This document shows positions 1,493-17,898 of a stretch of DNA of 37,911 bases, piece after piece. A program made the position numbers and the translations under genes. This DNA comes from Deltaproteobacteria bacterium (GTDB lineage: Bacteria > Desulfobacterota > BSN033 > UBA1163): positions 1-37,911 of the forward strand of contig JAGVBT010000013.1 of the NCBI GenBank assembly GCA_020059605.1, written 5' to 3'. The first letter of the stretch is position 1, and each line of letters begins with the position of its first letter. The notes beneath the pieces were generated by a model. That model was not told the DNA's origin. It was given only the letters and a program-made list of their open reading frames with translations, and did not search any database.

Positions 1493-1504
1493 AGGGCAGA
1501 TGAA

Positions 1505-3224: not shown

Positions 3225-4385
3225 TTAAGGTTTGGGAGGGGGCCGGCTGTCATAAATACGGGGTTCGCTCTTTTCAGGAAATTTGGACTTGTAGTCCTCG
3301 ACCCATTTCTTGATGTCAGGATCGTCCTTAACGGCCTCTGCGAGGGGAAAGGAACTCATCGTGAAAGGGTTTTTCTCTGCAAACTGTTTGAGGGTGTTTT
3401 CGATATTTTTCACGGTTTCCTGCCACTGCCTTTTTTCAGCCTCCGATGCGGTTGCCGAACTTAATCGTTGCCGGGCCTGCGTCAGATTTCGTTCATAGGT
3501 ATATTTTGTCGCCATATTGTAGAAAGGGGTTTCTCTATTGGAGAAAATCAAATTGAGTTTTTGGGCATACATCCCCTTGGAAGAGGTCTGAAGAATGATT
3601 GTTTTTTTGATGACGGGGGGATTGTTGAGATGAACCCCCGTATGACCTCCGACAATCATGTGGATTCCCGATGTCTTGAAAGCCAGATCCACATCCTGTT
3701 GATAACCAAGATGACTCAGCAGGATGATGAAATCTGTCTGGGATCCCAGTTCGTTGACCATTTCCTGTGCGGTTTCAACCGGGTCCCGGAAAATTAACCC
3801 GCTCCTTCTCGGATCGGAGGGACCTGTGAACACCTCCGGCGCAAGCAGGCTGAAAATCCCGACCCTCAACCCGTTGACCTCCTGCACGACGGAGCGCTGA
3901 AAAAGCGGCTGGTTGGAATCCTGATCAACCAGATTGGAAGAAAGGAACGGGATACGGGATCTTTTCGAAAGGTCCACGAGAAATTTCTTGCCGAGAGTGA
4001 GATCATCATCTCCGATTCCAATGGCATGATAGCCTATTCGCTCCAGGCTCTTCAGGATGAGAGAGGCCCTTTCTTCTAACCCCTCCCTTTCATTCTCCGG
4101 ATGGGGAACATGGAATTTTTTAAAAAAAAGATCTCCCGCATCCAGAAGGAGCAAACCTTTTTCCCTCTCTCTCACTTCTTTCACCCAGGTTGCTCTTCTG
4201 GCCAGACCGCCAAAACGAAGCGTCGGCCCTCACACCGGGCAGGGATCGATCTCTCCATTGATATTATTGCTGTAAAGGACGGTGACGGAGGGAGGCAGGG
4301 GTTGTCCTGCCAAAAAAGGACAATCCAAGGCAAAAAAAGCCAACGCCCATAAAATGAAGCCGATCATTCTTTGGATGTTGTTCAT
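3225..4385 (-). CDS. Selenoprotein metallophosphoesterase/5'-nucleotidase-like, CxxU
   Basis: A 386-residue exported protein if the in-frame TGA at 4232-4230 is read as selenocysteine (residue 52). Upstream of it lie a good signal peptide (MIGFILWALAFFALDCPFLAG) and LYSNNINGEIDPCPV. Downstream the frame continues GPTLRFGGLARRATWVKEV into a 5'-nucleotidase/metallophosphatase domain with LLLDAGDLF, SSNLVD and IVGGHTG. The paralogue at 7497-8606 aligns across the TGA and has PCGTC where this has C49-P-V-U52, so Sec replaces the second Cys. A hairpin with loop GGUCUG starts 8 bases after the TGA. The metal site is divergent: there is no DxH, and GNH(D/E) is replaced by GDDD. Substrate unknown. 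The ATG at 4383-4385 follows GGGGTAAGGCGGA. The alternative is a pseudogene with a nonsense mutation, which I consider unlikely. Confidence 0.83.
4192..4221 (-). promoter_or_regulatory. SECIS hairpin for the CxxU metallophosphoesterase
   Basis: On the - strand, GCUU (4221-4218) and UUUUGGC (4215-4209) pair with GCCAGAA (4202-4196) and GAGC (4195-4192), with a 2-base bulge. The apical loop is GGUCUG (4208-4203), the same GGUCU found in the E. coli fdhF SECIS loop. The loop begins 21 bases after the UGA, within the usual bacterial range. Confidence 0.75.
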
Positions 4386-4403
4386 TCCGCCTTACCCCTT
4401 TTC

Positions 4404-4431
4404 ATTATAGCATGGTTCCCTTTCATTTCCA
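4404..4431 (-). promoter_or_regulatory. Possible promoter for the CxxU gene
   Basis: On the - strand a perfect TATAAT (4409-4404) lies about 20 bases before the start codon. TGGAAA 16 bases upstream is a four-of-six -35 match. This would give the selenoprotein gene its own transcript besides read-through from the large cluster. Confidence 0.4.
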
Positions 4432-4476
4432 CCATTTCAATCAAATGATCTTCGATGCCACGGTTGTCGTTGCCTT

Positions 4477-5340
4477 TTATCCCGGGCCCGTCTCTTTTTC
4501 GATCACATCGAGGATTCTCCTGATAACGTCGTAATCCGAAGGAGATGTTTCTATAAACCCATGTTGAATCTCCTCATCCCATTTCGCCATTAATTTTCGG
4601 GTTCCCGGATTTTTCGGATTCAGTTTAAGAAGGGTCGCCTTAACGGACTGAACCATTTCTTCCGATGCTTCCGCCCGAACAATAATTGATACCGTCGGGA
4701 CCGGGTCGGTGATGTGGAGATGCCGAAGTCCTTTCTTTTTATATTGATGAGCCACAATATCCTTCACGGCCCCCGCATCAAACTCTCCCGCCAGGACGGC
4801 TTCGATGACATAATCATGGCTTCGAAGAAATGCGTACCGTTTCAAATCTTTCAACCCGACACCCGACTTAAGCAGATGATACCTTGGGAGGATATGGCCT
4901 GCGGTAGACCATTCTTGGGCAAAAGCAAAACTCCTTTTTTTGAGATCTGAAAGGTTCCGAATTGAACTGTCCTCCCGGGTAACAATGATCCCCCGATAAT
5001 ACGGACTTCCGTCTTTACTTAAGGCGCGCAGGATAGGGTTCACGGGGAACTTTTCTTTCGCTTTAAGATAAGGAATGGGACCGCACAAGGCGATGGGAGT
5101 CTCGCCCATCTCCGTCCTTCCAATGGTCTCCTGGTAAAAAGGTGCGAGCTTGATTTTGAACCGGTAGGCTGTGTTTTGATTCAGGTAATCGACAAAAGGC
5201 TCGTAAAGCCTTCTCATGGTTCGTAGATCATATTTCGGGCAAAGCCCAAATTGAATAACCTCTTGGGAAAAGACGGATGAGGACGGAAAAATGAAGAAAA
5301 AGACAGAGAGAAATATGAGTAGCCTAAATCGATGCCCCAT
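4477..5340 (-). CDS. PhnD-like periplasmic substrate-binding protein
   Basis: A 287-residue exported protein of the phosphate/phosphonate (PhnD/AioX) binding-protein family: signal peptide (LLIFLSVFFFIFPSSSVFSQ), then IQFGLCPKYDLRTMRRLYEPFVDYL, ALCGPIPYL, and the central block LSDLKKRSFAFAQEWSTAGHILPRYHLL. No ABC permease or ATPase gene is nearby, so it is more likely a sensor or scavenging binder than part of a transporter. AioX of this family binds arsenite through cysteine. Here the mature domain has Cys in FGLCP and ALCGP, which makes arsenite binding a fair inference given the neighbours. I chose the ATG at 5340 (AAGGTG upstream) over an earlier ATG at 5394 because the signal peptide follows it directly. 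Confidence 0.8.
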   Translation of the reverse strand: MGHRFRLLIFLSVFFFIFPSSSVFSQEVIQFGLCPKYDLRTMRRLYEPFVDYLNQNTAYRFKIKLAPFYQETIGRTEMGETPIALCGPIPYLKAKEKFPVNPILRALSKDGSPYYRGIIVTREDSSIRNLSDLKKRSFAFAQEWSTAGHILPRYHLLKSGVGLKDLKRYAFLRSHDYVIEAVLAGEFDAGAVKDIVAHQYKKKGLRHLHITDPVPTVSIIVRAEASEEMVQSVKATLLKLNPKNPGTRKLMAKWDEEIQHGFIETSPSDYDVIRRILDVIEKETGPG

Positions 5341-5434
5341 CAACACCTTACTCCCGATTGACACGTTTTTTAAATCATTTCTTTTACACTTCAATCTTGA
5401 ATAAAAACCTAATCGATAGTGGTGAAAATGTCAA

Positions 5435-5662
5435 TTATTTTTGCCAATGACCCATCATCCTGGACATCATCTCTTTCATGGGGAAATTCATCCCCTTCAT
5501 CATCTCCATACAGCGAGGCATCATCTCCTGCATTAAAGATGGATCCCCCATGCCGGTCTGGCAAAATTCGGGAATTAACTCTTTCATCGCTTCCTTTTGC
5601 TCCTCCCAAGATAACGCCTTAAACCGGATTACAAAATCATTTACTTTACTTCCCTGTTCCAT
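5435..5662 (-). CDS. Small Met/Cys-rich protein of unknown function
   Basis: A 75-residue protein with a helical N-terminal half (FVIRFKALSWEEQKEAMKELIPEF) and a C-terminal half crowded with Met and Cys (MQEMMPRCMEMMKGM, MKEMMSRMMGHW). I do not recognise a named family. The Met, Cys and His content suggests binding of soft metal or metalloid ions, which is inference. The ribosome site GAGGAGG lies 5 bases before the ATG at 5662. The gene begins one base after the stop codon of the UxxU selenoprotein, so the two are certainly co-transcribed and probably translationally coupled. Confidence 0.75.
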   Translation of the reverse strand: MEQGSKVNDFVIRFKALSWEEQKEAMKELIPEFCQTGMGDPSLMQEMMPRCMEMMKGMNFPMKEMMSRMMGHWQK

Positions 5663-5663
5663 C

Positions 5664-5990
5664 TTAACCTCCTCTTCTCGATTTGGTTTGATCTTTTTTG
5701 TCTTTAATATACTCCCTGTATTCCTTCATGAGGACGTTTTTATACTCACGGCGGGCGGAGGACGGAATATAATTATTATTTTTCTCCAGCCGATAGAGGA
5801 GCTCTTCGGCCGTCTCCTGATTCGGCGGCCTGCCTTCCGAGAAAAGCTCTGTCATGATCTCGTCCAGCCCGTTAATCCGGACCTGTATCCCATCCGGAAA
5901 TCTCAATGTGCGCCGACTACCTGTCGGCGTTTCAGGTTCTCAGCCCACTCATCCATCCCCTTCAATCTGCGAGATTCGATACTCGGTCAT
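5664..5990 (-). CDS. Double-selenocysteine (UxxU) small protein in ars cluster
   Basis: A 108-residue protein if two in-frame TGA codons (5951-5949 and 5942-5940) are read as Sec at residues 14 and 17, giving GDG-U-VG-U-EPE, a UxxU version of a CxxC motif. The ATG at 5990 has an excellent ribosome site (GGGAGGT). The frame continues through RFPDGIQVRINGLDEI, ELLYRLEKNNNYIPSSA and YKNVLMKEYREYI to 5664, a coherent soluble domain. A perfect 7-bp stem with loop AGGUA starts 10 bases after the second TGA. I do not recognise the fold; the C-terminal NYIPSSA segment looks conserved-type. It sits between acr3 and a Met-rich gene. Without Sec decoding, a translated 13-residue peptide with a perfect start would make no sense. 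Confidence 0.78.
5911..5929 (-). promoter_or_regulatory. SECIS hairpin for the UxxU protein
   Basis: CGCCGAC (5929-5923) and GUCGGCG (5917-5911) form a perfect 7-bp stem with loop AGGUA (5922-5918) on the - strand. The loop is 17 bases after the second UGA and 26 after the first, both within the usual bacterial SECIS distance. One element could therefore serve both codons. Confidence 0.8.
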
Positions 5991-6038
5991 GGGATACCTC
6001 CCTGAATGAATATCCCTACGTCGTGATTTTCCTCCCGC

Positions 6039-7133
6039 TCATGGTTTACAGGAGACGTGGCAGATTCCAGTGGGCGTCTCCACGGCAAATGGAAAATACT
6101 TTCTCTTTAACCAGAGGGCGAGATGAACAAGGTTGATTAAGACAGGAACCTCCACCAGCGGACCGATCACCGCCGCAAAGGCCTGGCCCGAGTTAATCCC
6201 GAAAACGGCCACGGCCACGGCAATGGCCAGCTCAAAATTATTCGATGCCGCCGTAAAACTGAGAGTGGTGGACTGTTCATAAGTCGCCCCCACCTTCGCC
6301 GAGAGGTAGAACGATACAAGAAACATCACGACAAAGTAAATGAGCAACGGAATCGCCACCCGGACCACATCGAGGGGAAGCCGGACGATGTATTCTCCCT
6401 TGAGAGAGAACATGACGAGAATGGTAAAGAGGAGGGCGATCAGGGTGATCGGGCTGATTTTGGGAACGAACTTCTCCTCGTACCACTGTCTCCCTTTTGT
6501 CTTCAAACCGATTACCCTGGAGAGAACGCCGGCAATGAAAGGAATGCCAAGGTAGATGAAGACGCTTTCGGCAATCTGACCGATGGTGATATCCACCACC
6601 ACCCCTCTCAGCCCGAGCAAAGGAGGAAGGAGGGTAATAAAAAAGTAGGCATAAATGGAGAAGAACAGGACCTGGAAGACGGAATTGAAGGCCACCAACC
6701 CGGCGCAATATTCCCTGTCTCCTGAAGCCAGGTCGTTCCAGACAATCACCATGGCGATGCAGCGGGCCAGGCCGATCATGATGAGACCCACCATGTAGTC
6801 CGGATAACCTCCCAGGAAGAGAACGGCCAGGATGAACATGAGAATGGGTCCGATGACCCAGTTCTGAACGAGGGAAAGGCCAAGGACTTTATAATTCCGG
6901 AAAACTTGCCCCAACTCCTCATATCTCACCTTCGCCAGGGGCGGATACATCATGAGGATCAGCCCGATGGCAATCGGTATGTTGGTCGTCCCGACCTGGA
7001 ATTGGTCCCAGAAGTGGACGATACCCGGAAACACGTATCCCCAGCCCACGCCGATAAACATCGCAAGAAAGATCCATAACGTCAAATAGCGGTCCAGGAA
7101 AGAGAGTTTTTTCATCACCTGCTCTTCAGCCAT
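6039..7133 (-). CDS. acr3: Arsenite efflux carrier ACR3
   Basis: A 364-residue, ten-helix carrier of the ACR3 family in the BASS superfamily. Diagnostic segments include [37 protein letters not shown], and [19 protein letters not shown] with the conserved essential Cys (residue 125). The later [19 protein letters not shown] matches the second discontinuous-helix region. The family exports arsenite (and antimonite in some members) in antiport with protons at the inner membrane. The ATG at 7133 has AGAGGAGG upstream. It lies between the UxxT selenoprotein gene (upstream) and the UxxU gene (downstream), all on one strand with short gaps. The C terminus adds a short Cys-containing tail (ICHVSCKP). 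Confidence 0.95.
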
Positions 7134-7204
7134 TTCTGGTATCCTCCTCTTGTTGCGGTTGCATTAAATCGCTGGACCGGCAGACTGCCGGCACATCAGA
7201 CCGA

Positions 7205-7411
7205 TCAGGTTCCTCCAAAACCGACGGTCACCTTGTCCCCTTCGATAATAACCGGTATTTGTCTTTTTCCCTCCGAATATTTCAACATCTCTTCAAGCTT
7301 AGCACTGTTAGCCCCCACGTCTTCAAAAACCGCCTTGTTCCCGTAGGCTTCACGAGCCTTTTGGGTATGCGGTCAACTCCCTGTTCCGAAAATGATCACT
7401 TTTGGAGACAT
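7205..7411 (-). CDS. Glutaredoxin-like selenoprotein, UxxT
   Basis: A 68-residue protein if the in-frame TGA at 7375-7373 is read as Sec (residue 13). It begins MSPKVIIFGTGS-U-PHTQKAREAYG, which is the glutaredoxin pattern with U-P-H-T in place of C-P-x-C, and continues to FEDVGANSAKLEEMLKYSEG and RQIPVIIEGDKVTVGFGG, the Grx cis-Pro/GG region. The size and fold match short UxxT/CxxT glutaredoxin-like proteins. The ATG at 7411 has a perfect AGGAGGT 6 bases upstream. A hairpin with loop CGUGA follows the TGA at the right distance. Its role is probably selenol-based thiol exchange or reduction in the arsenic cluster, which is inference. It lies upstream of acr3 in the same direction. Confidence 0.85.
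7340..7365 (-). promoter_or_regulatory. SECIS hairpin for the UxxT protein
   Basis: On the - strand AGGCU (7359-7355) pairs with AGCCU (7349-7345) around loop CGUGA (7354-7350), with a lower CCC/GGG stem (7365-7363 with 7342-7340). The loop begins 18 bases after the UGA and contains the GU typical of bacterial SECIS loops. Confidence 0.72.
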
Positions 7412-7496
7412 TTGACCACCTCCTGTTTTGCTGTTGATCCGGTTTTATCAGATGCTCTTTTTTTTACATCGCTTAATGAAGTCCACATCGGGTCGA

Positions 7497-8606
7497 TCAG
7501 GGAAGCGCCCTTTTTAATAGGTCCCTCGACGAATCGATCATCCTTTGAATTTCCAGATCGGATTTCATCCCGGGATGCATCAGGACCAAATAATTTTCGT
7601 ATGTGTTTTTGCCTTCGGATCCCGGGATCTTCTTCTTTTGCTCAGTCAATATGTCCTGAAGTTCTTTCAAACCTTTCATGTCTTTTGCATGTTTCGGATT
7701 TTCTATCTTTTCCTGGATCTCCTCGATCTTGTTCTGGATTAATCTTCTCGACAAAATGTCTGCAAACTCATACGATCCCTTTAATAGATTTAAATTCAGC
7801 CTTCCGACATGAATGCCGAAGGCATCGGTCTGGACATAAAGCGAACGGCCGACCTGTTTTGGAAACACGAAAGAACGATCGTTCCCTCCAATGATGATTG
7901 AAATGGATTGGACCTCCCTAACAAAGGATTCGATCTCGACTCGAGTGAGGTGAGCAAGAAGAATCAGATGGTCACAGGATGAGGTGAGGGAGCGGATGGT
8001 CTCCACGGCGGCTTTGACCGGGTTTTCGATGAAATAGTTTTTTAACTCCTTCTGGATGGGAGGAGAAATGTCAGCCGTGACCAGGCCGAGGATTCCAATC
8101 TTAATCCCTTCCACTTCTTTAATAAGGTATGGTTTAAAAACGGGTTTCCCTGTCTTTTTCTCTCTGAGATTTGCCGAAAGGAATGGAATCGTTGATTTTT
8201 TTTGAAGACCCTTCAGATATCCTACGCCCAATCCCAGGTCGGTATCCCCGATATTCAGGGCGTGGTAACCCAATGTTTCATATAACTTCAAGACAAACTC
8301 CGCTCTTCGCCTGGCCTGTTCGCGTCCCCGGGGCTCGCTGAAATAACTGACGACCAATGCGTCACCCGCATCGAGGACGAGGAGATTTTTGACTTCTTCC
8401 TTAACCGTTTTAAGATAGTGAGACCTTCTGGGCAACCCTCCGTTATCTCCCCCATCCGGGCAGGTCCCGCAAGGCTCCACCTCTCCCAGGTTGTTCGAAG
8501 TATATATGAGGGTGAGCGAGGCTTCCTTTCCAATACAAAGAGAAGGTCCCATCAGTAAAGAGAAAAATATAACGAGAATACCGAGCAGAATTTTTTCACC
8601 CCTCAT
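7497..8606 (-). CDS. Exported metallophosphoesterase-like protein, Cys paralogue
   Basis: A 369-residue protein with a signal peptide (ILLGILVIFFSLLMGPSLCIG), then LTLIYTSNNLGEVEPCGTC, GGLPRRSHYLKTV, LLVLDAGDAL, NIGDTDLGLG, FLSANL and IIIGGNDRSF. This is the 5'-nucleotidase/metallophosphatase fold and a clear paralogue of the selenoprotein at 3225-4385. It keeps Cys at the position where that one has Sec. The metal ligands are even more divergent (GGND instead of GGHT), so it may have lost phosphatase activity and use the PCGTC motif for redox or metal binding. The ATG at 8606 has AGAGGGGA upstream. It sits between a BASS-family carrier and the UxxT gene. Confidence 0.82.
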   Translation of the reverse strand: MRGEKILLGILVIFFSLLMGPSLCIGKEASLTLIYTSNNLGEVEPCGTCPDGGDNGGLPRRSHYLKTVKEEVKNLLVLDAGDALVVSYFSEPRGREQARRRAEFVLKLYETLGYHALNIGDTDLGLGVGYLKGLQKKSTIPFLSANLREKKTGKPVFKPYLIKEVEGIKIGILGLVTADISPPIQKELKNYFIENPVKAAVETIRSLTSSCDHLILLAHLTRVEIESFVREVQSISIIIGGNDRSFVFPKQVGRSLYVQTDAFGIHVGRLNLNLLKGSYEFADILSRRLIQNKIEEIQEKIENPKHAKDMKGLKELQDILTEQKKKIPGSEGKNTYENYLVLMHPGMKSDLEIQRMIDSSRDLLKRALP

Positions 8607-8638
8607 ATTTTCCCCTCTGTTCTCGAAAACTTAAGGAT

Positions 8639-9607
8639 TCAGCTTTTCGGTGGATATTTTTGAGTTTTCATAAAAAACTGATAGAAACCGACGGCCGTAA
8701 GCATCTGAAAAGCGAATCCCACCGCCACCGGCAACATCTCCAGACCCTTAAAGCTCATAGCCGCTATGCCAATGGCAATGGGCAGGTTCTTCATCCCCGA
8801 TGAGTAGGTGATGGCAATATTCTTACTCCTGGGAAAGAATTTAAGGCTTACTACATAAGCCACTAAAAATAAAATAGGGAAAATCAGTATGGTGGATGTA
8901 ACCAAAGGCGCTATCAGTCCTATGTTTTTCATGATTGGGGGGATGTTGGTGTTAATTGCCATGAACATCAACAATACAGCCATCGTCGCCGAGATGGCCG
9001 GCATCACCGGCAGGTACTTCTGAACATTCGCCTCTCTTTCTATAACCTCCCTTAAGGCGATACCTCCCAGCACCGGCAGAAGCACAGTATAAATGAGCTG
9101 CCGGAACATCCCCCAGGTGTTAACAGTGACAAATGTGCCGGCAAACAGGGACATCAGCAATGGTATGAGGAAAGGTGCCAGAATCATGGTGGCAGCGTTG
9201 ATGACAGTGGCCAGAGGAACATCCCCTCTAAGGAGACCGGCCCAGACCAAAGCCATACCAGCGCAGGGGACCACACCGATTAGAATCAGGCCTGTGGCTA
9301 AATCAGAATGTCCGGATAGGAACAGTAGGGCCAGAAGCCAGCATAAGAAAGGAGCAAAAAGGAAGTTCAGCGCCAGCCCGAAAGAGAACCCTCTCCAGTC
9401 CTTAGCTGCTGTTCCCAGGCGCTTGAAGATGATGGTGAAACCCATCGCGCCGATCATGATAATGATGAGCGGAGTATTAAACTGACGAATATAGACCCCG
9501 GGTCGGGCGGTGATTAAGCCCACTATCACCCCAATAACCAAAGTAGTTATAATGATGTAGGTGTAGTTCTCCCTAACAAATTTAGCATAATTCATTATGA
9601 ACTTCAT
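8639..9607 (-). CDS. BASS-family carrier, arsenic-resistance type
   Basis: A 322-residue integral membrane protein with about ten helices of the bile acid:sodium symporter/ACR3 superfamily, distinct from the ACR3 at 6039-7133. GVVPCAGMALVWAGLLRGD carries a Cys (residue 115) at the position corresponding to the ACR3 functional Cys. YSSGMKNLPIAIGIAAMSF corresponds to the second crossover region. Relatives of this subgroup are annotated as arsenic resistance proteins; substrate identity is inference from family and context. The ribosome site before the ATG at 9607 is weak, and a second ATG (9595) is possible. A repeat-rich 123-base gap separates it from the truncated DGC gene upstream. Confidence 0.8.
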   Translation of the reverse strand: MKFIMNYAKFVRENYTYIIITTLVIGVIVGLITARPGVYIRQFNTPLIIIMIGAMGFTIIFKRLGTAAKDWRGFSFGLALNFLFAPFLCWLLALLFLSGHSDLATGLILIGVVPCAGMALVWAGLLRGDVPLATVINAATMILAPFLIPLLMSLFAGTFVTVNTWGMFRQLIYTVLLPVLGGIALREVIEREANVQKYLPVMPAISATMAVLLMFMAINTNIPPIMKNIGLIAPLVTSTILIFPILFLVAYVVSLKFFPRSKNIAITYSSGMKNLPIAIGIAAMSFKGLEMLPVAVGFAFQMLTAVGFYQFFMKTQKYPPKS

Positions 9608-9699
9608 TTATGGAACCTTGATTTAACCCTAATTGAGCGAAAAAAACCCTATATTGAATTGTTTCACCGATGGTTAAGCGATTATCGATTTTTATGGTC

Positions 9700-9800
9700 A
9701 CCTTTTAAAATCCCCCTCATTCCCCCTTTTTCAAAGGGGGATGATAACTTTATTCTCCCCTTTGGCAAAGTCGTTGCGACTCAAAACCGGGGGGATTCTC
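9700..9800. repeat. CCCCCTTT-type palindromic repeat with nested 22-base insert
   Basis: ATCCCCCTCATTCCCCC, then TTTTTCAAAGGGGGATGA and CTCCCCTTTGGCAAAG, form the common CCCC-TTT/AAA-GGGG hairpin repeat. The second hairpin is interrupted at 9770-9791 by GTCGTTGCGAC plus TCAAAACCGGG. Removing these 22 bases rejoins CCCCTTTGGCAAA to GGGGATTC and restores the hairpin. The repeat supplies the 3' end of the DGC reading frame at 9731-9976. Confidence 0.7.
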
Positions 9801-9976
9801 TCCGGTAATGCTCCCAGGCAGCCAATCGCCACCTTTTCAGGCCCCAGTTCCTTAACCGCCTCCAAAGAGGCTAAGGCGTTGGTGATGCCCGTGTTCGAGA
9901 GTCCCCCGAAACAAGAAAAGATAAGGTTCTCGTGAGTCTTCATCCCTTCCTGCCAATGTTTTTGTTCTTCTGCCAT
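9731..9976 (-). pseudogene. Truncated DGC-domain (putative zinc-binding) protein
   Basis: The first 65 residues (ENLIFSCFGGLSNTGITNAL, ASLEAVKELGPEKVAIGCLGAL) are a clear start of a DGC-domain, putative zinc-binding protein like the one at 15814-16230. After IPPVL the frame runs into the dispersed repeat at 9700-9800, and the last 16 residues (SRNDFAKGENKVIIPL) are repeat-encoded. The second half, which in the family carries the DGCP-x-x-CA(K/R) Cys motif, is missing. The ATG at 9976 has AAGGAGAA upstream, so the fragment is probably still translated. It looks like a real cluster member broken by repeat insertion or deletion. Confidence 0.7.
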
Positions 9977-10005
9977 GCCAGTTCTCCTTTCTCTTTAAAG
10001 ATTCA

Positions 10006-10038
10006 CCCCGTTAGAAAGTAGAAGACTTTCTAACGGGG
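10006..10038. terminator. Perfect 14-bp hairpin after the DUF1684 gene
   Basis: CCCCGTTAGAAAGT (10006-10019) and ACTTTCTAACGGGG (10025-10038) form a perfect stem with a 5-base loop, directly downstream of the DUF1684 stop codon on the - strand. There is no T-tract on that strand, so it may slow transcription or protect the 3' end rather than terminate fully. Confidence 0.55.
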
Positions 10039-10039
10039 T

Positions 10040-10690: not shown

Positions 10691-10730
10691 TATCACTTCC
10701 CTATGCCTCAGTGTCGGTTAAACATTTCTA

Positions 10731-11528: not shown

Positions 11529-11549
11529 GAGAGTTTTGGCTCCTTTCTT

Positions 11550-12116
11550 CTAATTTGAATCAGATTTGAAATGCTCCTCCGGGACTTCGTATCCGGAGCC
11601 TTGAAGGAGGCTGAGAAGGCTCTTTCGCTTCTCCTGATGTTGTTCTAAAAAAAGGAGAGTGCATTTTGTGATGTCTGACTCCCGTCTCACCAATTTATAA
11701 GAAAAGGCGAAGCAGGTTTGTTCCCCGCATTCTTTGCAATTTGTTTTGGGAAGAAATTTAAGAATCTCCGATGATTTCAACTCCTTTCTCGAATTATAAT
11801 CAGGCTTAATGTGTTCCCGGTTCTGATCGGTCTCATTAACAATCTGTCTCAACTCCTCCATGACTTCCCTGGCCTCTTTCTCATCCTCCAGTTTGGTGAT
11901 GGCAATCTCCCTGGGCCGGAAGGTAATCAGATGTCCCTTCCGTTTGATCGTCAATATCTTTTCTTGATCATTATATTGGAACCCTTTGAGCACGGCATTG
12001 AGATACGGAAAGACCGGACTGATATCCTTGGAAACCGTTGCGATTGCATTGACGGTCTGCGCTGAAAAATTACACTCGGGGAGGACGATCCTCAATTGAT
12101 ATTCATTCAATAACAT
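11550..12116 (-). CDS. [4Fe-4S]-motif protein, paralogue A
   Basis: A 188-residue protein whose C-terminal part carries LPKTNCKECGEQTCFAF followed by a fourth Cys in DITKCTLL. This C-x2-C-x4-C-x(n)-C pattern is the [4Fe-4S] motif of the acetyl-CoA decarbonylase/synthase gamma-subunit N-terminal domain. The N-terminal part (YQLRIVLPECNFSAQTVNA, VFPYLNAVLKGFQYN, ITFRPREIAITKLEDEKEA) is shared with the gene at 12187-12750. I chose the ATG at 12116 because AGGAGGTG precedes it; the longer frame upstream reads the neighbour in another frame. Probable role: electron transfer, partner unknown. The pairing with its paralogue suggests a heterodimer. Confidence 0.8.
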   Translation of the reverse strand: MLLNEYQLRIVLPECNFSAQTVNAIATVSKDISPVFPYLNAVLKGFQYNDQEKILTIKRKGHLITFRPREIAITKLEDEKEAREVMEELRQIVNETDQNREHIKPDYNSRKELKSSEILKFLPKTNCKECGEQTCFAFSYKLVRRESDITKCTLLFLEQHQEKRKSLLSLLQGSGYEVPEEHFKSDSN

Positions 12117-12186
12117 GGGGCACACCTCCTTTTGGCTTACAGGTATAGGATTGTTTGAAAAAAATCTTCCATCGTAATCCCTTTCT

Positions 12187-12750
12187 TTAACTGTTCCCGG
12201 ATTCGAAGGGCTCCGCGGGGACTTTAAGGCCGGCGTTGCGGAGCGTCTCAAACAGGAGCTTTCGTTTCTCCGTAAACTCATCCGAGAACAGGGGGGCGCA
12301 CTTCTCAATGCCTATCTGATCCCGCAATAATTTAAAGGCAAAGGCAAGACAGGTCAGAAGCCCGCATTTTTTACAATTCGTTCCCGGGAGCAGTTTGATG
12401 ATATCGGTCGGTTTCAGCTCCTGCCTCATGGTATAGTCGGGCTGGATTTTATCCCTACCCAAATAGGTCTCGTTCACCAGGTTCTGCAGCCACCCCAGAA
12501 TCTTCTCCGCCTCTTCTTCATTGTCAATCTTCGTGAGGGTGATGTGCAGTGGGTGGAGGGTGATGATTTTATCGCCTTTTTTGAAAGTGAGCGTTAACGC
12601 CGGATGATTGTAAATACATCCTTCCAATGTAGCGTTCAGATAAGGGAAGACCTTTTGAATTTCGCCAAGAACCTCTGCGACGACCCTAATCTTTTCTGGA
12701 TCTGCAAGGCAGGGGAGAACCCGGGTGATTTTATAGGCATTGAATGACAT
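12187..12750 (-). CDS. [4Fe-4S]-motif protein, paralogue B
   Basis: A 187-residue protein, homologous over its full length to the gene at 11550-12116: YKITRVLPCLADPEKIRV, VFPYLNATLEGCIYN, ITLHPLHITLTKIDNEEEA, then LLPGTNCKKCGLLTCLAFAFKL and IEKCAPLF for the four cluster ligands. It probably binds a [4Fe-4S] cluster. It starts 7 bases after the stop of the DsbD-like fusion and is followed by paralogue A after 70 bases. No membrane segments or signal peptide are seen, so it is cytoplasmic. A plausible inference is that the pair feeds electrons to, or takes them from, the membrane thiol carrier encoded just upstream. Confidence 0.8.
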   Translation of the reverse strand: MSFNAYKITRVLPCLADPEKIRVVAEVLGEIQKVFPYLNATLEGCIYNHPALTLTFKKGDKIITLHPLHITLTKIDNEEEAEKILGWLQNLVNETYLGRDKIQPDYTMRQELKPTDIIKLLPGTNCKKCGLLTCLAFAFKLLRDQIGIEKCAPLFSDEFTEKRKLLFETLRNAGLKVPAEPFESGNS

Positions 12751-12757
12751 GGCTTTC

Positions 12758-14287: not shown

Positions 14288-14311
14288 CAGCTTTACCTCG
14301 TGATCAACTGA

Positions 14312-14476
14312 TTAATCAGTCCATAATTGTATAGACACGAAAAAACAAACCGTTCGTGCTGAGCCTGTCGAAGCCTGAACGGCAAGATACCACACCCTTC
14401 GACAAGCTCAGGTCGCTTCGACTCGCAACCGAGGTGAACGGTAAGGGATATGTCTTTCCAATTATGGACTCCTTAG
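14312..14476. mobile_element. MITE-like element with 20-bp terminal inverted repeats
   Basis: The left end AATCAGTCCATAATTG (14314-14329) and right end, read inward as CTAAGGAGTCCATAATTG, are inverted repeats that extend through TATAGACA versus GAAAGACA. The same termini bound the element at 34838-35004. The interior differs and holds a CTGAGCCTGTCGAAG/CTTCGACAAGCTCAG hairpin with the nested 22-base insert. There is no transposase frame. It lies between ccdA and the DsbD-like gene and provides the ccdA stop codon. Confidence 0.7.
14412..14433 (+). repeat. Nested 22-base insert, copy 2
   Basis: GTCGCTTCGAC followed by TCGCAACCGAG splits the 3' arm of the CTTCGACAAGCTCAG...GTGAACGG hairpin. 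Deleting it restores the arm that matches CCGTTCGTGCTGAG on the 5' side. The insert itself can form two adjacent 4-bp hairpins (GTCG/CGAC and CTCG/CGAG). Confidence 0.65.
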
Positions 14477-15171
14477 TAAATGGTTATTCCCAGATAAAAC
14501 AGATAAATCCCCACCAATACGACGATTGACCCGCCGACCCTTTTTCCCCAGGCGGTCATATTGATGATCCCTTTGGATTTGACAAAGTTTTCTGCAAAAC
14601 CGGTGGCCGTTCCCGCAAGAAAGATCAGGGCGCAGTGGCCAAGGGCATAAATAAATAACAGGGAGGTCCCGTAAACGACCTCTCCTTTTGAAGCAACAAA
14701 GGTGAGGATCAGTGCCAGGACAGGCGTGGCGCATGGCGAAGAAATAATTCCAAAGAAAAGGCCGAGAAGGAGCGCCCCCAATATCCCTCTTTGCTTGGGT
14801 TGAAGATGAACCGGTATGGGAAGGTTCCACTCGAAAAGGCCGACAAGCTGTAAGCCAATAATGACAGCAATCGCTCCGGCGATATAGTACCACGCGCTGC
14901 TGAACAAACCGAAGAGCCCTCCCACCAGAGAGGCTATGGCTCCCAAAATAGTGAACGTGATCGAGAGGCCGAGGATAAACGTCAGCGAATAAAGCAACGC
15001 CTTTCGCCGGTCTCCTTCGGAATACCCGCCTACATATCCGATTACCAGGGGAATGGTCGCCAGAACACAGGGGCTTGAAGAGGAAAGGATGCCCCCGATG
15101 AACACGCCGAGATAGGCAAGGAAGGGGTTATCCGCAATTGATTGAGAAAGATGATTGAGAAATAATTCCAT
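14473..15171 (-). CDS. ccdA: CcdA-type thiol electron carrier
   Basis: A 232-residue six-helix membrane protein of the CcdA/DsbD family. The two redox Cys are in SSSSPCVLATIPLVIGYVGG and GIISSPCATPVLALIL. The family passes electrons from cytoplasmic thioredoxin to exported thioredoxin-like proteins. It starts 3 bases after the stop of the periplasmic thioredoxin gene at 15175-15585, its obvious partner. The C-terminal TAA lies inside the terminal inverted repeat of the element at 14312-14476, so the last residues (GITIY) were probably fixed by that insertion and the original end may have been a little longer. Confidence 0.92.
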   Translation of the reverse strand: MELFLNHLSQSIADNPFLAYLGVFIGGILSSSSPCVLATIPLVIGYVGGYSEGDRRKALLYSLTFILGLSITFTILGAIASLVGGLFGLFSSAWYYIAGAIAVIIGLQLVGLFEWNLPIPVHLQPKQRGILGALLLGLFFGIISSPCATPVLALILTFVASKGEVVYGTSLLFIYALGHCALIFLAGTATGFAENFVKSKGIINMTAWGKRVGGSIVVLVGIYLFYLGITIY

Positions 15172-15174
15172 AAT

Positions 15175-15585
15175 CTATTTTACTCCCATCTTGCCAAATA
15201 TTTTTATGATTTCTTCCTTACTCATGAACCCCACATGCCGGTAAACTTCCCGATTCTTGGCGTCGAAGAAAATCTGTGTCGGGATGGCCCGTATTCCATT
15301 GATCCTTGTCAACTCCTTCTCCTGATAAACCTCGATCACCTTGATGATGACCCGCCCTTGATATTCCTCTGTCAGATCTTGGAGGATAGGAGCCATTTTC
15401 TTGCATGGGATGCACCTGTTCGCCCCAAAATCGATAAGCTTGGGTAGGGAAATTTTCGCCACCTCTTTAGGCAAGCGCTCAGATTTCGATTGAGGGAAGG
15501 CGCCTTGAGGGTAGGAAGGAATAATGAGTAAAAAAAATAAAAAGCATAGGCCCGTGGTTAGAATCTTTTGTCTTATCAGTATCAT
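15175..15585 (-). CDS. Exported thioredoxin-family protein (CIPC)
   Basis: A 136-residue protein with an N-terminal membrane/signal segment (ILTTGLCFLFFLLIIPSYPQGAFP) and a thioredoxin domain: LPKLIDFGANRCIPCKKMAPIL, VIIKVIEVYQEKELTRINGIRAIPTQIFFD with the cis-Pro, and YRHVGFMSKEEII. It is very similar in wording to the thioredoxin domain of the fusion at 18055-18954 (FGANSCLPCRQL, ALPTLVFFD). It should act outside the cytoplasmic membrane and be re-reduced by the CcdA encoded immediately downstream. The substrate is unknown; reduction of arsenical or selenol partners in this cluster is inference. Confidence 0.9.
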   Translation of the reverse strand: MILIRQKILTTGLCFLFFLLIIPSYPQGAFPQSKSERLPKEVAKISLPKLIDFGANRCIPCKKMAPILQDLTEEYQGRVIIKVIEVYQEKELTRINGIRAIPTQIFFDAKNREVYRHVGFMSKEEIIKIFGKMGVK

Positions 15586-15654
15586 TGAGTAACCTTATCT
15601 TTTTTAACAAACGGATTGTTTTCAGCTTGCACGAAGCTTGAAAGGAATGACCTC

Positions 15655-15804
15655 TCACTGCTCCCGGGTCGCCTGGTCGACCTGCGGTTTCAAAACCTCC
15701 TTGAGGAACAGAAAAGCATCCTCCTTGTCTTCGTCAAGAAAAATCCTTACCAGCCTGAGTAGCTCCTCGGAGTCGAGTTTTACATTAATGGATTTTACAA
15801 TCAT
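15655..15804 (-). CDS. 49-residue conserved-looking small protein
   Basis: A short frame (MIVKSINVKLDSEELLRLV, then RIFLDEDKEDAFLFLKEVLK, ending KPQVDQATREQ) that reads as one amphipathic helical hairpin. GAGG lies 5 bases before the ATG at 15804. It begins 9 bases after the stop of the DGC gene, in operon arrangement. I do not recognise a family; no Cys or membrane segment is present. Coding is supported by the ribosome site, codon use and tight spacing, not by homology. Confidence 0.65.
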   Translation of the reverse strand: MIVKSINVKLDSEELLRLVRIFLDEDKEDAFLFLKEVLKPQVDQATREQ

Positions 15805-15813
15805 CTGATTTCC

Positions 15814-16230
15814 TCACAATAGACCCATTCTTTTTGAGATTCGGGTTGACAGATATTGGGATACCTTCTCCACATCAGAAGTGAGAGGGTTCAAGTTATA
15901 ATTCTTCTCTATGCCCATACTCGTAATTTCGACATATTCATCGACATTGAACCCGGCGTGCTCAAGCGTTTTCTTAGCACATGCCACCGGGCAACCATCA
16001 ATGGCCACAATGACTTTGCCCGCTTTGGTTGACTCAATCATCCCGCTGACATGACCGCCGATGCCAGCCAGACAGAAGAATTTCCCCGTGCCCTCTCGGG
16101 TCAATTTTACCCCTGCTTGGTTAGCAATCTGTCCAACATTCGATCCTCCCGAACATGGAAAAATCAATATCTCAGTTGGTTCGCACAAGCATTTTTTTCC
16201 ATTTCCCTCCCCTTTTATTCGGAGATCCAT
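15814..16230 (-). CDS. DGC-domain putative zinc-binding protein
   Basis: A 138-residue protein of the DGC-domain family: EILIFPCSGGSNVGQIANQAG (residues 21-41), GKFFCLAGIGGHVSGMIES, and IVAIDGCPVACAKKTLEHAGF containing the name-giving D-G-C with a second Cys. The conserved Cys suggest zinc or other thiophilic ion binding. Biochemical function is not established, although the gene often accompanies arsenic/thioredoxin/permease genes. The ATG at 16230 overlaps the end of the UxxC thioredoxin gene by 16 bases, so translation is coupled. A truncated second copy of this family lies at 9731-9976. Confidence 0.88.
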   Translation of the reverse strand: MDLRIKGEGNGKKCLCEPTEILIFPCSGGSNVGQIANQAGVKLTREGTGKFFCLAGIGGHVSGMIESTKAGKVIVAIDGCPVACAKKTLEHAGFNVDEYVEITSMGIEKNYNLNPLTSDVEKVSQYLSTRISKRMGLL

Positions 16231-16451
16231 TTCTTAATCTCTTCCGGTTTCGGAACTTTGCCCGCGATTTTTACAATTCCGTCCACAACGAGGGCGGGGG
16301 TGAGGAGAACTCCATAATTGGTAATGGTTTTAATATCCTGGACTTTAACTACCTCGGCATCAACTCCGAGCTCTTTGACCGCCTCTTTAGCTCGCTCCGC
16401 AAGCTGGTTGCATTTGGCTCACCCCATACCTAATACTTCGATTTTTTTCAT
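16215..16451 (-). CDS. Selenocysteine thioredoxin-like protein, UxxC
   Basis: A 78-residue protein if the in-frame TGA at 16421-16419 is read as Sec (residue 11): MKKIEVLGMG-U-AKCNQLAERA, then VKELGVDAEVVKVQDI, YGVLLTPALVVDGIVKIAGK and PEEIKKWISE. This is the small thioredoxin family often called redox-active disulfide protein, which normally has GCxKC; here the first Cys is Sec, giving UxxC. AAGGAG precedes the ATG at 16451, and a hairpin with loop CGGAG follows the TGA. It lies between the ArsP-like permease gene (19 bases upstream) and the DGC gene (overlapping). Relatives are typically paired with this permease type, suggesting a role in reducing its substrate. Confidence 0.9.
16389..16405 (-). 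promoter_or_regulatory. SECIS hairpin for the UxxC thioredoxin
   Basis: AGCUUG (16405-16400) pairs with CGAGCU (16394-16389) around loop CGGAG (16399-16395) on the - strand. The loop begins 19 bases after the UGA and contains the GG typical of bacterial SECIS loops. Confidence 0.75.
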
Positions 16452-16470
16452 CTTCAATCTCCTTTTCCTT

Positions 16471-17499
16471 TTACGTAAAATAATGACCGAAGGTCATCCC
16501 GATGATCGTTGACATGATGGCCACCAATAATATGTAGGTCATTCCTTTCTTCGCTCCCATGACCCGGACGATGACGATCATGCTGGGTAAACTCAGGGCA
16601 GGCCCGGCAAGGAGAAGGGCCAGGGCGGGCCCCCGCCCCATCCCCATGTCGAGAAATGCCCTGATGATGGGAACTTCTGTCAGGGTTGCAAAGTACATGA
16701 GCGCCCCGAAAACGGAGGCAATCAGATTGGATCGGAGGGAATTGCCCCCCAGCCATTTCTGGATCAATGTTTCCGGAACGAGGGTTTTGATCATCCCTGC
16801 CACAAACACTCCGATGAGAAGCCACGGGGTAATCAATTTAACGAACCCCCATGTTGCCAGCAGCCATTCCTTGATCTCCTCCCGGTTATACCAGCGTTTC
16901 AAGGCAGCAAGCAGGACGATAAAGGATATGGCTGTCAGAATCCACATCTTCTGCGAAGCAAAGACGAGGATCCCTACCAGGGCGGCAAAATAGATGAGGA
17001 GAACATAGCCCCTCTTGCCTCCCTCGGGCACACCAAGAGTCAATGCCTGATTCAACTTCTCTTTTTCCTCTCTCCGGAAGAGAAACGCCATGATAAGTCC
17101 GATTACGATTGAGAATAAAACGGCGCCAACGGCTCTTCCGATCCCTAAATCCAGTCCAAGGAGCCTTGCGGAATAGGCAATCGCCAGAATATTAATCGCC
17201 GGACCTGAATAAAGGAATGCCGTAGCCGGGCCAATCCCGGCTCCCCTTTGATAGATACCGGAAAAGAGCGGTAGAACTGTGCATGAACAAACGGCCAGAA
17301 CCGTCCCGGAAACGGAGGCCACACAATAAGAGAGCGCTTTCTTTGCCTGGGCGCCGAAATATTTAATCACGGAGGCTTGGGAGACAAAAACCCCGATCGC
17401 CCCTGCAATGAAAAAAGCTGGAATCAGGCAGGTAAGAACATGGGCGGAGAGGTAATCAATAAAAGCATCTATCCCACCCTGAAGGATAAGCATGAACAT
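16471..17499 (-). CDS. Permease, ArsP/YraQ (DUF318) family
   Basis: A 342-residue membrane protein with about eight to ten helices. The signature block is VLAVCSCTVLPLFSGIYQRGAGIGPATAFLYSGPAINILAI, and the second half repeats the topology with FATLTEVPIIRAFLDMGMGRGPALALLLAGPALSLPS. The vicinal Cys in CSC fit a thiophilic substrate. ArsP members export trivalent organoarsenicals; other members are uncharacterised permeases, so the substrate here is inference. It follows arsR after 21 bases and precedes the UxxC thioredoxin gene, the common permease-thioredoxin pairing. The ATG at 17499 follows AAAGGAG. Confidence 0.88.
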   Translation of the reverse strand: MFMLILQGGIDAFIDYLSAHVLTCLIPAFFIAGAIGVFVSQASVIKYFGAQAKKALSYCVASVSGTVLAVCSCTVLPLFSGIYQRGAGIGPATAFLYSGPAINILAIAYSARLLGLDLGIGRAVGAVLFSIVIGLIMAFLFRREEKEKLNQALTLGVPEGGKRGYVLLIYFAALVGILVFASQKMWILTAISFIVLLAALKRWYNREEIKEWLLATWGFVKLITPWLLIGVFVAGMIKTLVPETLIQKWLGGNSLRSNLIASVFGALMYFATLTEVPIIRAFLDMGMGRGPALALLLAGPALSLPSMIVIVRVMGAKKGMTYILLVAIMSTIIGMTFGHYFT

Positions 17500-17520
17500 C
17501 GATCAATCTCCTTTCCTCAC

Positions 17521-17838
17521 TTATAGCGCGCGAACCAATCTGCTCTGCTCATTTACCTGTTTCTTGATCACTGTGCTGATCCTGTCAAGGATTTCGAAGA
17601 TCTTTGGGTCCCGCACCCTGACCATCACCTTGACTCCGTCCTTTCGGGTCGTGACGAGATGACTCTTCTGCATGAGCGAAATATGCCGGGAGATATTGGA
17701 TTGCTCTCCATTGATCGCCGGAACAATCTCACAGATACATCGTTCTCCGCTCCGAAGAAGTTCAAGGATCTTCAAACGGGTGGGCTGGGCAAGGGCCTTT
17801 AGCACTTCCGCCTTCATTTCAAGAATCCGTTCCTCCAT
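17521..17838 (-). CDS. arsR: ArsR-family metalloregulator
   Basis: A 105-residue winged-helix repressor: EVLKALAQPTRLKILELLRSGERCICEIVPAINGEQSNISRHISLMQKSHLVTTRKDGVKVMVRV. ERCICEIV corresponds to the ELCVCDL metal-site motif of ArsR, with both Cys present, so an arsenite-type ligand is likely. The ATG at 17838 has GGAGGA just upstream; earlier ATGs at 17850 and 17865 lack a site, and the latter lies inside the operator palindrome. The gene heads the long - strand cluster, and the palindrome at 17852-17877 overlaps its promoter, which indicates autorepression and control of the downstream genes. Confidence 0.92.
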   Translation of the reverse strand: MEERILEMKAEVLKALAQPTRLKILELLRSGERCICEIVPAINGEQSNISRHISLMQKSHLVTTRKDGVKVMVRVRDPKIFEILDRISTVIKKQVNEQSRLVRAL

Positions 17839-17851
17839 AAAATCCTCCATG

Positions 17852-17877
17852 ATTATATGATTCATTAATCATATAAT
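17852..17877. promoter_or_regulatory. ArsR operator palindrome
   Basis: Perfect inverted repeat: ATTATATGATT (17852-17862) and AATCATATAAT (17867-17877) separated by CATT. It lies between the -35 box and the arsR start and covers the -10 region, the classical place for an ArsR operator. Confidence 0.8.
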
Positions 17878-17898
17878 TTAAACCTCATAACTTGTCAA
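17870..17898 (-). promoter_or_regulatory. Promoter of the arsenic/redox cluster
   Basis: On the - strand TTGACA (17898-17893), a 17-base spacer and TATATG (17875-17870) form a good sigma-70 promoter. Its -10 box lies inside the operator palindrome. Confidence 0.65.

What the first reader, a model, noticed from the sequence alone, without database searches (positions are those of the whole stretch)
3225..17898. ArsR-headed arsenic/redox cluster containing four separate selenocysteine genes
Along one strand from an ArsR gene and operator palindrome lie two arsenite-type carriers, an ArsP-like permease, CcdA, a DsbD-like fusion, exported thioredoxin, Fe-S proteins and four genes with in-frame TGA codons placed exactly at redox-motif residues (UxxC at 16421, UxxT at 7375, UxxU at 5951/5942, CxxU at 4232). 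Each TGA is followed by a stem with a GG, GGU or GU loop 17-21 bases downstream. Four such coincidences, each with a strong ribosome site and coherent protein on both sides of the TGA, are not explained by decay. Seen: TGAs, hairpins, motifs. Known: SECIS rules and ars families. Inferred: a selenol-based arsenic (or other thiophilic element) detoxification or sensing pathway with transmembrane electron supply.
Basis: partly seen in the sequence, partly recalled or inferred. Interest (0 to 1): 0.95.

Follow-up and report, generated by a model that had tools for sequence, protein, structure and literature searches.

The report
Selenocysteine-rich arsenic resistance gene cluster
An uncultured bacterium carries an arsenic-type resistance gene cluster in which four proteins are predicted to use selenium instead of sulfur at their reactive sites, one of them from a small two-selenium protein family that the searched libraries do not describe.

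Summary
The genome has selA, selB and a TGA-containing selD; selC is absent from this 93.7%-complete assembly, but its pattern is in 8 of 9 other same-genus genomes. The setting is arsenic-type: ArsR with CxC and an operator-like palindrome, ACR3, ArsP, thioredoxin/CcdA genes; the second 'arsenite carrier' fails the ACR3 cut-off. New is the 108-aa UxxU protein: no NCBIfam, Pfam or PDB family; 34 full-length loci in 33 of 395 phylum genomes, 33 with Sec at both sites and one with Leu and Sec; Cys-rich forms seen only as lower-scoring paralogues. A conserved, covarying SECIS follows, and ACR3 lies within 8 kb of 18 of 33 other loci. Proposed role (inferred): a diselenol carrier handing As(III) or a similar metalloid to ACR3, ArsD-like in function, not descent. 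No experiment supports the function.

The parts
17521..17865 (-). ArsR/SmtB-type regulator, CxC motif (C43, C45 of the listed frame; ERCICEI)
   Evidence: NF033788 83 bits over cut-off 55; PF01022; Cys positions
17853..17876 (.). perfect 10-bp inverted repeat (4-nt spacer), putative ArsR operator, near TTGACA at 17898; overlaps the first codons of the longest ArsR frame, so the true start is probably further in
   Evidence: start is my reading
16471..17499 (-). ArsP_1 permease, CSC motif
   Evidence: PF03773 272.8 bits over cut-off; below cut-offs of the SO_0444 and SaoE models
16215..16451 (-). TrxU: MTH895/ArsE-family thioredoxin-like protein with Sec at codon 11 (UAKC; TGA at 16421)
   Evidence: TIGR00412 108.1 bits, cut-off 62; relatives with TGA and with Cys; dN/dS after TGA 0.19
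15814..16230 (-). DGC-domain protein
   Evidence: PF08859 119.3 bits
15175..15585 (-). thioredoxin with hydrophobic N-terminus, CIPC
   Evidence: PF00085 over cut-off; TIGR01068 below equivalog cut-off
14473..15171 (-). CcdA/DsbD-type membrane electron carrier
   Evidence: PF02683 82 bits
12758..14287 (-). two CxxC segments followed by a hydrophobic, DsbD-like part
   Evidence: sequence and Cys list; no family over cut-off
11550..12750 (-). two Fe-S proteins (listed frames 11550-12308 and 12187-12750)
   Evidence: PF04060 46.3 and 40.4 bits
10731..11528 (-). DUF169 protein
   Evidence: PF02596 162.2 bits
10040..10696 (-). DUF1684 protein
   Evidence: PF07920 134.9 bits
8639..9607 (-). SBF-superfamily carrier, not ACR3 by cut-off
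   Evidence: PF01758 102.4 bits; TIGR00832 73.5 < 282.8
7497..8606 (-). UshA-like protein, Cys paralogue (PCGTC)
   Evidence: NF041198 209.3 bits, below cut-off 275
7206..7411 (-). UXX-star glutaredoxin-like selenoprotein, Sec at codon 13 (UPHT; TGA at 7375)
   Evidence: NF041114 91.7 bits over cut-off 72; Cys orthologue in G007, Sec in other loci; dN/dS 0.13
6039..7133 (-). ACR3 arsenite efflux transporter (C125 in GLARCIAMV)
   Evidence: TIGR00832 468.3 bits over cut-off
5664..5990 (-). UxxU: new double-selenocysteine protein, 108 aa, Sec at codons 14 and 17 (TGA at 5951 and 5942)
   Evidence: dN/dS after TGA 0.13-0.29
5907..5933 (-). 27-nt stretch with the SECIS hairpin of UxxU, loop AGGTA (AGTTA in most relatives)
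5435..5662 (-). small Met-rich protein, next to UxxU also in family-level relatives
4477..5394 (-). PhnD-type periplasmic binding protein
   Evidence: PF12974 193.1 bits
3225..4385 (-). UshA-like selenoprotein with hydrophobic N-terminus, Sec at codon 52 (PCPVU; TGA at 4232)
   Evidence: NF041198 222.8 bits, below cut-off 275; Sec in relatives; dN/dS 0.15

Best explanation
An ArsR-controlled arsenic(III)-type detoxification cluster of a Syntrophaceae-like deltaproteobacterium in which UGA is read as selenocysteine in four genes. Shown by sequence comparison: the Sec sites, a conserved SECIS for the UxxU gene, ACR3 and ArsP transporters, and conserved neighbourhood. Inferred: (a) UxxU, a small domain with a flexible N-terminal arm carrying two Sec residues, captures As(III) or a similar thiophilic metalloid as a diselenolate and passes it to ACR3, as ArsD does with thiols for ArsAB; (b) the UXX-star and thioredoxin-like selenoproteins keep it reduced or relay the metalloid, the thioredoxin-like one probably serving the ArsP permease; (c) CcdA, the exported thioredoxin and the DsbD-like fusion send electrons across the membrane to the exported UshA-like protein with its PCxxU site.
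For: Sec: exact TGA sites; Cys in the G007 orthologues of UXX-star and TrxU against Sec in the window and G140; CxxC paralogue of the UshA-like protein in the same cluster; 34 UxxU hits above 115 bits in 33 of 395 genomes, 33 with Sec at both sites and one with Leu and Sec; dN/dS 0.13-0.29 after the TGA; SECIS more stable than control codons in 34 UxxU genes, mean -10.3 against -3.9 kcal/mol, p=6e-16 with related genes counted as independent; 36 of 36 serines of the hairpin coded AGY; covariation score reached by 0 of 500 shuffles; selA, selB 371.7 bits, selD with its own in-frame TGA. Arsenic setting: ACR3, ArsP_1, ArsR CxC, palindrome. UxxU role: ACR3 relative within 8 kb in 18 of 33 other loci, 16 within 2.5 kb, while those genomes hold 0-2 matches to the ACR3 model each; UXX-star 46 bp from UxxU in L054 and L055, outside the family of the window; the C-terminal domain of UxxU occurs in one frame with a TIGR00412-type thioredoxin domain in other loci; AlphaFold model with a disordered arm (residues 1-22) before an ordered domain.
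Against: selC was not found in this assembly by four searches; the one Rfam match at the gathering score (47 bits) is a tRNA-Ser by ARAGORN. Nine of 33 other UxxU loci show no homologue of any of the 13 gene groups tested (some lie at contig ends) and some sit among housekeeping-type genes, so the arsenic link is not universal. Five TGA-free paralogues at 63-83 bits exist, four of them seen to have Cys-rich arms, so Sec is not indispensable to the wider domain family. No metal-binding or redox data exist. The fold search gave no significant hit. Single hairpins of the window are unremarkable.
Confidence: 0.6

Rival explanations
1. The selenoproteins are real, but UxxU is a redox protein (diselenide/diselenol electron carrier or reductase cofactor) for the thioredoxin-like partner or an arsenate or organoarsenical reductase, not a metalloid carrier.
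For: UxxU resembles CxxC redox motifs; partners are thioredoxin-, glutaredoxin- and CcdA-like; fused relatives join the domain to a thioredoxin domain.
Against: Spacing varies (UxxU, UxxxU, UxxxxU) and the Sec pair is in a predicted disordered arm, unlike a thioredoxin-fold active site; close pairing with ACR3, an exporter not known to need a reductant (recalled).
Confidence: 0.3
2. The true substrate is not inorganic arsenite but another thiophilic element or organometal (antimonite, mercury, organoarsenical, thioarsenate); the ars-type genes only mark the class.
For: Selenoproteins of transport type are linked to mercury and arsenic and the SAO operon to organometals (review PMC13188914, passages); the UshA-like proteins have detectable similarity to SoxB (84.9 and 54 bits, below its cut-off).
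Against: A bona fide ACR3 (468.3 bits) and an ArsR with CxC motif; no SaoL, SaoB or SaoC hit.
Confidence: 0.25
3. The TGAs are ordinary stops or decay: the genes are truncated pseudogenes, or the genome uses TGA for another amino acid.
For: The assembly lacks selC; single hairpins are weak; TGA also ends genes here, for example the UXX-star frame at 7206.
Against: TGA kept in 34 of 34 UxxU loci, Cys exchange, dN/dS 0.13-0.29, covarying SECIS, Sec machinery bar selC.
Confidence: 0.02

Closest known systems
UXX-star selenoprotein family 1 (NF041114)
   Same: Window 7206-7411 passes the curated cut-off and has the UxxT site given for it in PMC13188914
   Different: Here it stands in an ACR3/ArsP cluster with three other selenoprotein genes
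UshA-like (seleno)protein families NF041198 and NF049981
   Same: Homologous over residues 32-372 and 34-309; Sec after a PC motif
   Different: Below both cut-offs; spacing is CPVU (CxxU); DxH and GNHE motifs of 5'-nucleotidases read as NxN and GDDD (my reading, motifs recalled)
MTH895/ArsE thioredoxin-like family TIGR00412
   Same: Over cut-off; next to an ArsP-type permease
   Different: Sec instead of the first Cys; in the capped list, 13 matches (window included) have a TGA and the rest do not
ArsD arsenic metallochaperone
   Same: Proposed role only: small carrier beside an arsenite exporter
   Different: No ArsD-domain hit for UxxU; Sec pair instead of Cys; no homology shown
SAO (Sec-assisted organometallic) and Tso selenoprotein operons
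   Same: Operons with several selenoproteins (review PMC13188914, section 9)
   Different: No SaoL, SaoB, SaoC, SaoP, TsoA or TsoC hit; SaoT, SaoE, TsoB and TsoR models only far below cut-off. The original papers were not held
ArsEFG organoarsenical system
   Same: ArsE-like thioredoxin family
   Different: ArsG model only below cut-off (48.4 and 22.4 against 200); its function is known to me by recall and a paper title

Membership tests
Bacterial selenoprotein | in-frame UGA aligned with Cys or Sec in relatives | tested here: met
   for UxxU the close relatives are Sec-only, Cys-rich arms occur in divergent paralogues
Bacterial selenoprotein | SECIS hairpin just after the UGA | tested here: met
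   strong for UxxU. Same loop position in the Sec homologues scanned of UXX-star (6 of 6), TrxU (2 of 2) and UshA (window, L050, L052), but for UXX-star not better than many control sites; those three are suggestive only
Bacterial selenoprotein | selA, selB, selC, selD in the genome | tested here: inconclusive
   selA, selB, selD met; selC not found in this assembly; pattern in 8 of 9 other same-genus genomes; ARAGORN names tRNA-Sec in the 5 of these 8 whose match was fetched
Bacterial selenoprotein | selenium in the protein | not testable with these tools
   needs 75Se labelling or mass spectrometry
UXX-star family 1 (NF041114) | score over curated cut-off 72 | tested here: met
   91.7 bits
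UshA-like selenoprotein NF041198 / NF049981 | score over curated cut-off (275 / 140) | tested here: not met
   222.8 and 70.4 bits
ACR3 (TIGR00832) | score over cut-off 282.8 | tested here: met
   6039-7133: 468.3 bits; 8639-9607 fails at 73.5
MTH895/ArsE TIGR00412 | score over cut-off 62 | tested here: met
   108.1 bits
ArsD metallochaperone | ArsD domain (PF06953) | tested here: not met
   no hit for UxxU or its 33 relatives; TrxU only at E 0.048, 14.4 bits against 27
SAO system | Sao proteins over cut-off | tested here: not met
   20 cluster proteins scanned; SaoT model 18.1 against 65, SaoE 116.5 against 325, no other Sao model listed
Tso operon | Tso proteins over cut-off | tested here: not met
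   TsoB 88.7 against 805, TsoR 42.3 against 115
UxxU metal-binding selenoprotein NF041115 | score over cut-off 95 | tested here: not met
   one of 34 members at E 0.035, no other member listed; cut-off as shown

The most novel reading that the evidence does not exclude
UxxU is the first described member of a family of diselenol metalloid carriers: among close relatives it occurs only with selenocysteine (no Cys form among the 34 hits above 115 bits in 395 genomes), and it passes As(III) to ACR3, fed by two further selenoproteins, so that the whole cytoplasmic arsenic route runs on selenols.
Probability: 0.3. Interest if true: 0.88.

Novelty: new variant of a known kind. Interest (0 to 1): 0.75.

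Why it matters
It adds a selenoprotein family that standard annotation would miss, because read by the standard code these frames stop after about 8-29 codons, and it places it beside the ACR3 arsenite exporter in many genera. Selenols bind soft metalloids strongly and are stronger acids than thiols (general chemistry, recalled), so a carrier whose close relatives keep Sec at both sites would make the question 'why selenium instead of sulfur' testable in one small protein. It also joins several selenoproteins in one putative detoxification route.

Tried and rejected
Second arsenite carrier: rejected as ACR3 by cut-off. Structure: the UxxU model (mean pLDDT 76.1) gave no PDB fold match with E below 0.5 (the best, a RiPP leader-binding protein at 0.54, was ignored); the pdb_via library was not available. 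Sequence search of the PDB with the family profile: nothing at E 0.1. Alignment A1 was too divergent for the genome-contig scan; a subset of eight gave 17 named loci. Promoter and terminator scans are at noise. I suspected a repeat element in the short DGC-like frame at 9731; none of the 148 fetched loci holds the string, so this stays unproven. selA presence does not discriminate (355 of 395 phylum genomes over cut-off).

Papers: Haft and Gwadz 2023 and Haft and Tolstoy 2025 are not held and were seen only through the review PMC13188914, of which I saw the abstract, section 7 part 1 of 3, section 9 and passages; its table was thus seen in part 1 and in pieces. deep-Sep paper PMC12013277: one passage. 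PMC2440759: passages. PMC10190100: one passage, a reference title. Nothing joining selenoproteins with an ACR3/ars cluster appeared in the listings; these are listings only, some cut to 15 or 20 rows, and most subscription journals are not held.

Limits of my own tests: the ATG starts were chosen by the script (nearest upstream ATG), so 'all ATG' is no result; ribosome sites were judged by eye. The counts leave out the window, use a 30-bit threshold and are cut by contig ends. In one search six named loci that repeat unnamed ones were left out, and my expressions missed Sec homologues (UXX-star of L049 and L088; UshA of the window, L051, L053, L092) and the Cys forms of UXX-star and UshA, so its n is partial. 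The hairpin test uses my own rules modelled on recalled bSECISearch limits, not that program. In one search identical rows were merged (44 to 38); the two outer pairs fail in 15 and 13 of 38 sequences, and two of five measures are not unusual against shuffles. The list is capped. Of the eight loci scanned, L109, L115, L117 (other matches in G237, G215, G045) and L113 (the only own-genome match) hold no tRNA-Sec; the tRNA-Sec-like matches of G237, G215 and G045 were not fetched.
Full report
What was checked. The window is contig C91 of a 4.38 Mb draft genome (167 contigs, 93.7% complete, 3.74% contamination). Named relatives are MAG records called Deltaproteobacteria, Syntrophaceae and the like. 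The five TGA codons are at the stated bases, and reading them as Sec gives continuous proteins with the motifs UAKC, UPHT, UVGU and CPVU.

Are they selenocysteine? (1) UXX-star (7206-7411): the same-genus genome G007 has GTEGCPYT where the window has GTGSUPHT; G140 and more distant loci have U. It passes the NCBIfam model NF041114. (2) TrxU (16215-16451): G007 has MGCAKC, G140 has MGUAKC. In the phylum search 270 of 395 genomes match at E 1e-9; in the capped list 13 matches, the window included, carry one TGA, in three families of genomes, and the others listed carry none. (3) UshA-like (3225-4385): Sec is kept in L050, L051, L052 and L053 (L092), and the paralogue at 7497-8606 has PCGTC at the place of PCPVU. 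(4) UxxU (5664-5990): see below. Sequence after the last TGA evolves under constraint: dN/dS 0.13-0.29 for UxxU in six comparisons, and 0.19 TrxU, 0.13 UXX-star, 0.15 UshA in one comparison each.

Machinery. The genome has selA, selB at 371.7 bits and selD at 391.7 bits with one in-frame TGA. selC was not found: the Rfam search (150 of 617 candidates scored) has one match just at the gathering score, which ARAGORN calls tRNA-Ser; patterns (the one hit holds no tRNA) and a relative's tRNA-Sec as DNA query gave nothing; the stretch around selA has no tRNA. Of nine other same-genus genomes eight hold a tRNA-Sec-like match; the match was fetched for five of them, and ARAGORN names all five tRNA-Sec: G319, G007, G397, G395 and G140. 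Rfam scores two of these at 79 bits. I take the gap as an assembly gap; that is inference.

The UxxU family. With the single protein, 88 of 395 phylum genomes match at E 0.001, many by the C-terminal domain only. With the profile (50 of 395 genomes at E 1e-6) hits fall into two groups. Above 115 bits are 34 full-length hits in 33 genomes, all holding TGA in the aligned region; their sequences show Sec at both sites in 33 and Leu then Sec in one, G299. Below are partial hits at contig ends or without the arm, a truncated copy with two TGAs (G245), five TGA-free paralogues at 63-83 bits that cover most of the model, of which four were seen to have Cys-rich arms (CPC or PCC), and frames of about 170 aa in which the domain precedes a TIGR00412-type thioredoxin domain. 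The two Sec are spaced UxxU, UxxxU or UxxxxU. All 17 named loci hold such a gene, one of them the Leu-Sec form. None of 34 members has a convincing family in NCBIfam of June 2026 or Pfam (isolated hits at E 0.01 or worse), and the profile finds nothing in the PDB. The catalogue of 119 prokaryotic selenoprotein families in PMC13188914, as far as I saw it, lists other UxxU proteins (NF041115, an FmdB-type TIGR02605 and Prx-like), whose models these do not match apart from one NF041115 hit at E 0.035.

SECIS. In 34 UxxU genes the best allowed hairpin after the second TGA averages -10.3 kcal/mol against -3.9 at downstream control codons of the same genes (Mann-Whitney p=6e-16, related genes counted as independent; 21 of 34 rank in the best 10%). 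It is formed by the codons of P-T-V-S-R, loop AGTTA in most; among 44 genes the loop codon is GTT in 39 and all 36 serines there are AGY. Counting the seven-pair helix on 38 distinct sequences: 85% of cells paired, 16 cells with changes on both sides, covariation score 0.199; none of 500 shuffles reaches these three values, but the number of pairs with double change (3; reached by 162 of 500) and of further pair types (9; reached by 83 of 500) are not unusual. Relatedness inflates such tests, so I read this as strong support, not proof. For the other three genes the hairpin is only suggestive.

The cluster. On one strand: ArsR (CxC) with palindrome, ArsP_1, TrxU, DGC, thioredoxin, CcdA, CxxC/DsbD-like fusion, two Fe-S proteins, DUF169, DUF1684, SBF carrier, UshA-like Cys, UXX-star, ACR3, UxxU, small Met-rich protein, PhnD-type, UshA-like Sec. 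G140 keeps eleven of these in the same order (ArsR, ArsP, TrxU, Trx, CcdA, fusion, Fe-S, UshA-Cys, UXX-star, ACR3, UxxU) and G007 seven (ArsR, ArsP, TrxU, Fe-S, UXX-star, ACR3, UxxU), both without the SBF/DUF1684/DUF169 part. Of 33 other UxxU loci, 18 have an ACR3 relative within 8 kb (16 within 2.5 kb), 13 a Trx_3, 12 ArsR, 11 ArsP, 10 CcdA; 21 have at least one of ACR3, ArsP and ArsR. The genomes hold 0-2 matches to the ACR3 model each, so by my arithmetic chance would give well under one such locus. Nine loci show none of the groups tested; some are among housekeeping-type genes, and one (L065) has an arsenate-reductase-like protein nearby (my reading of the sequences).

How it may work. 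See the best explanation. Shown: Sec sites by comparison, SECIS of UxxU, gene families, synteny, and a model with a low-confidence arm (residues 1-22, pLDDT below 50) and an ordered domain of two strands and three helices. Inferred: metalloid capture by the Sec pair, transfer to ACR3, reduction by TrxU and UXX-star, electron export by CcdA. The UshA-like proteins seem to lack metal ligands of 5'-nucleotidases (NxN for DxH, GDDD for GNHE; read from the sequence, motifs recalled), so a binding or redox role at PCxxU is likelier than phosphatase activity.

Verdict. Four genuine selenoprotein genes in an ars-type cluster: about 0.97 as a prediction. Arsenic or a similar metalloid as target: about 0.85. 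Carrier role of UxxU: about 0.35-0.4. Novelty: three genes are Sec forms of, or close to, described families; UxxU is an undescribed double-Sec family within the searched libraries, and the combination did not appear in the literature listings named under Tried and rejected.

Noticed in passing
1496-1558 (+): Fluoride riboswitch aptamer (59.2 bits) just upstream of a Na/H-exchanger-type gene 1633-2802, next to the cluster but on the other strand.
   Followed up: partly
9731-9976 (-): A short DGC-like open frame (my reading; no Pfam or NCBIfam hit) that seems cut short at a repeat-like stretch CCCCCTTTGAAAAAGGGGG; none of the 148 fetched loci holds the longer string searched.
   Followed up: partly
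18055-18954 (+): Divergent gene joining a SurA-type N-terminal domain to a thioredoxin; in G007 and G140 relatives of the CxxC/DsbD-like fusion and a thioredoxin are divergent at this place.
   Followed up: no
L049 (G140) about 5534-6945: ACR3 beside UxxU appears in pieces in G140, with an extra C-terminal fragment holding a TAG: a frameshift or a decaying gene.
   Followed up: no
L053 8979-9278 (G299), same gene in L092: Only UxxU member with one Sec: GLITU, first Sec replaced by Leu; its best hairpin is weaker and placed differently.
   Followed up: partly
L048 10403-11278, also L057, L069, L071, L072, L075, L083, L084, L085: The UxxU C-terminal domain lies in one frame with a TIGR00412-type thioredoxin domain, often near ArsP.
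   Followed up: partly
L052 15765-17027 (G081), same in L091: UshA-like Sec gene broken over several frames while the TGA site is kept.
   Followed up: no
19103-19660 (+): MntP-type putative manganese efflux pump (PF02659) next to the cluster.
   Followed up: no
26033-30304 (+): 1423-aa RHS-repeat protein beside a CsgG-type gene 25247-26020.
   Followed up: no
L103 (G000:C150:37026-37952): selD of this genome is itself a predicted selenoprotein gene, with one in-frame TGA.
   Followed up: partly
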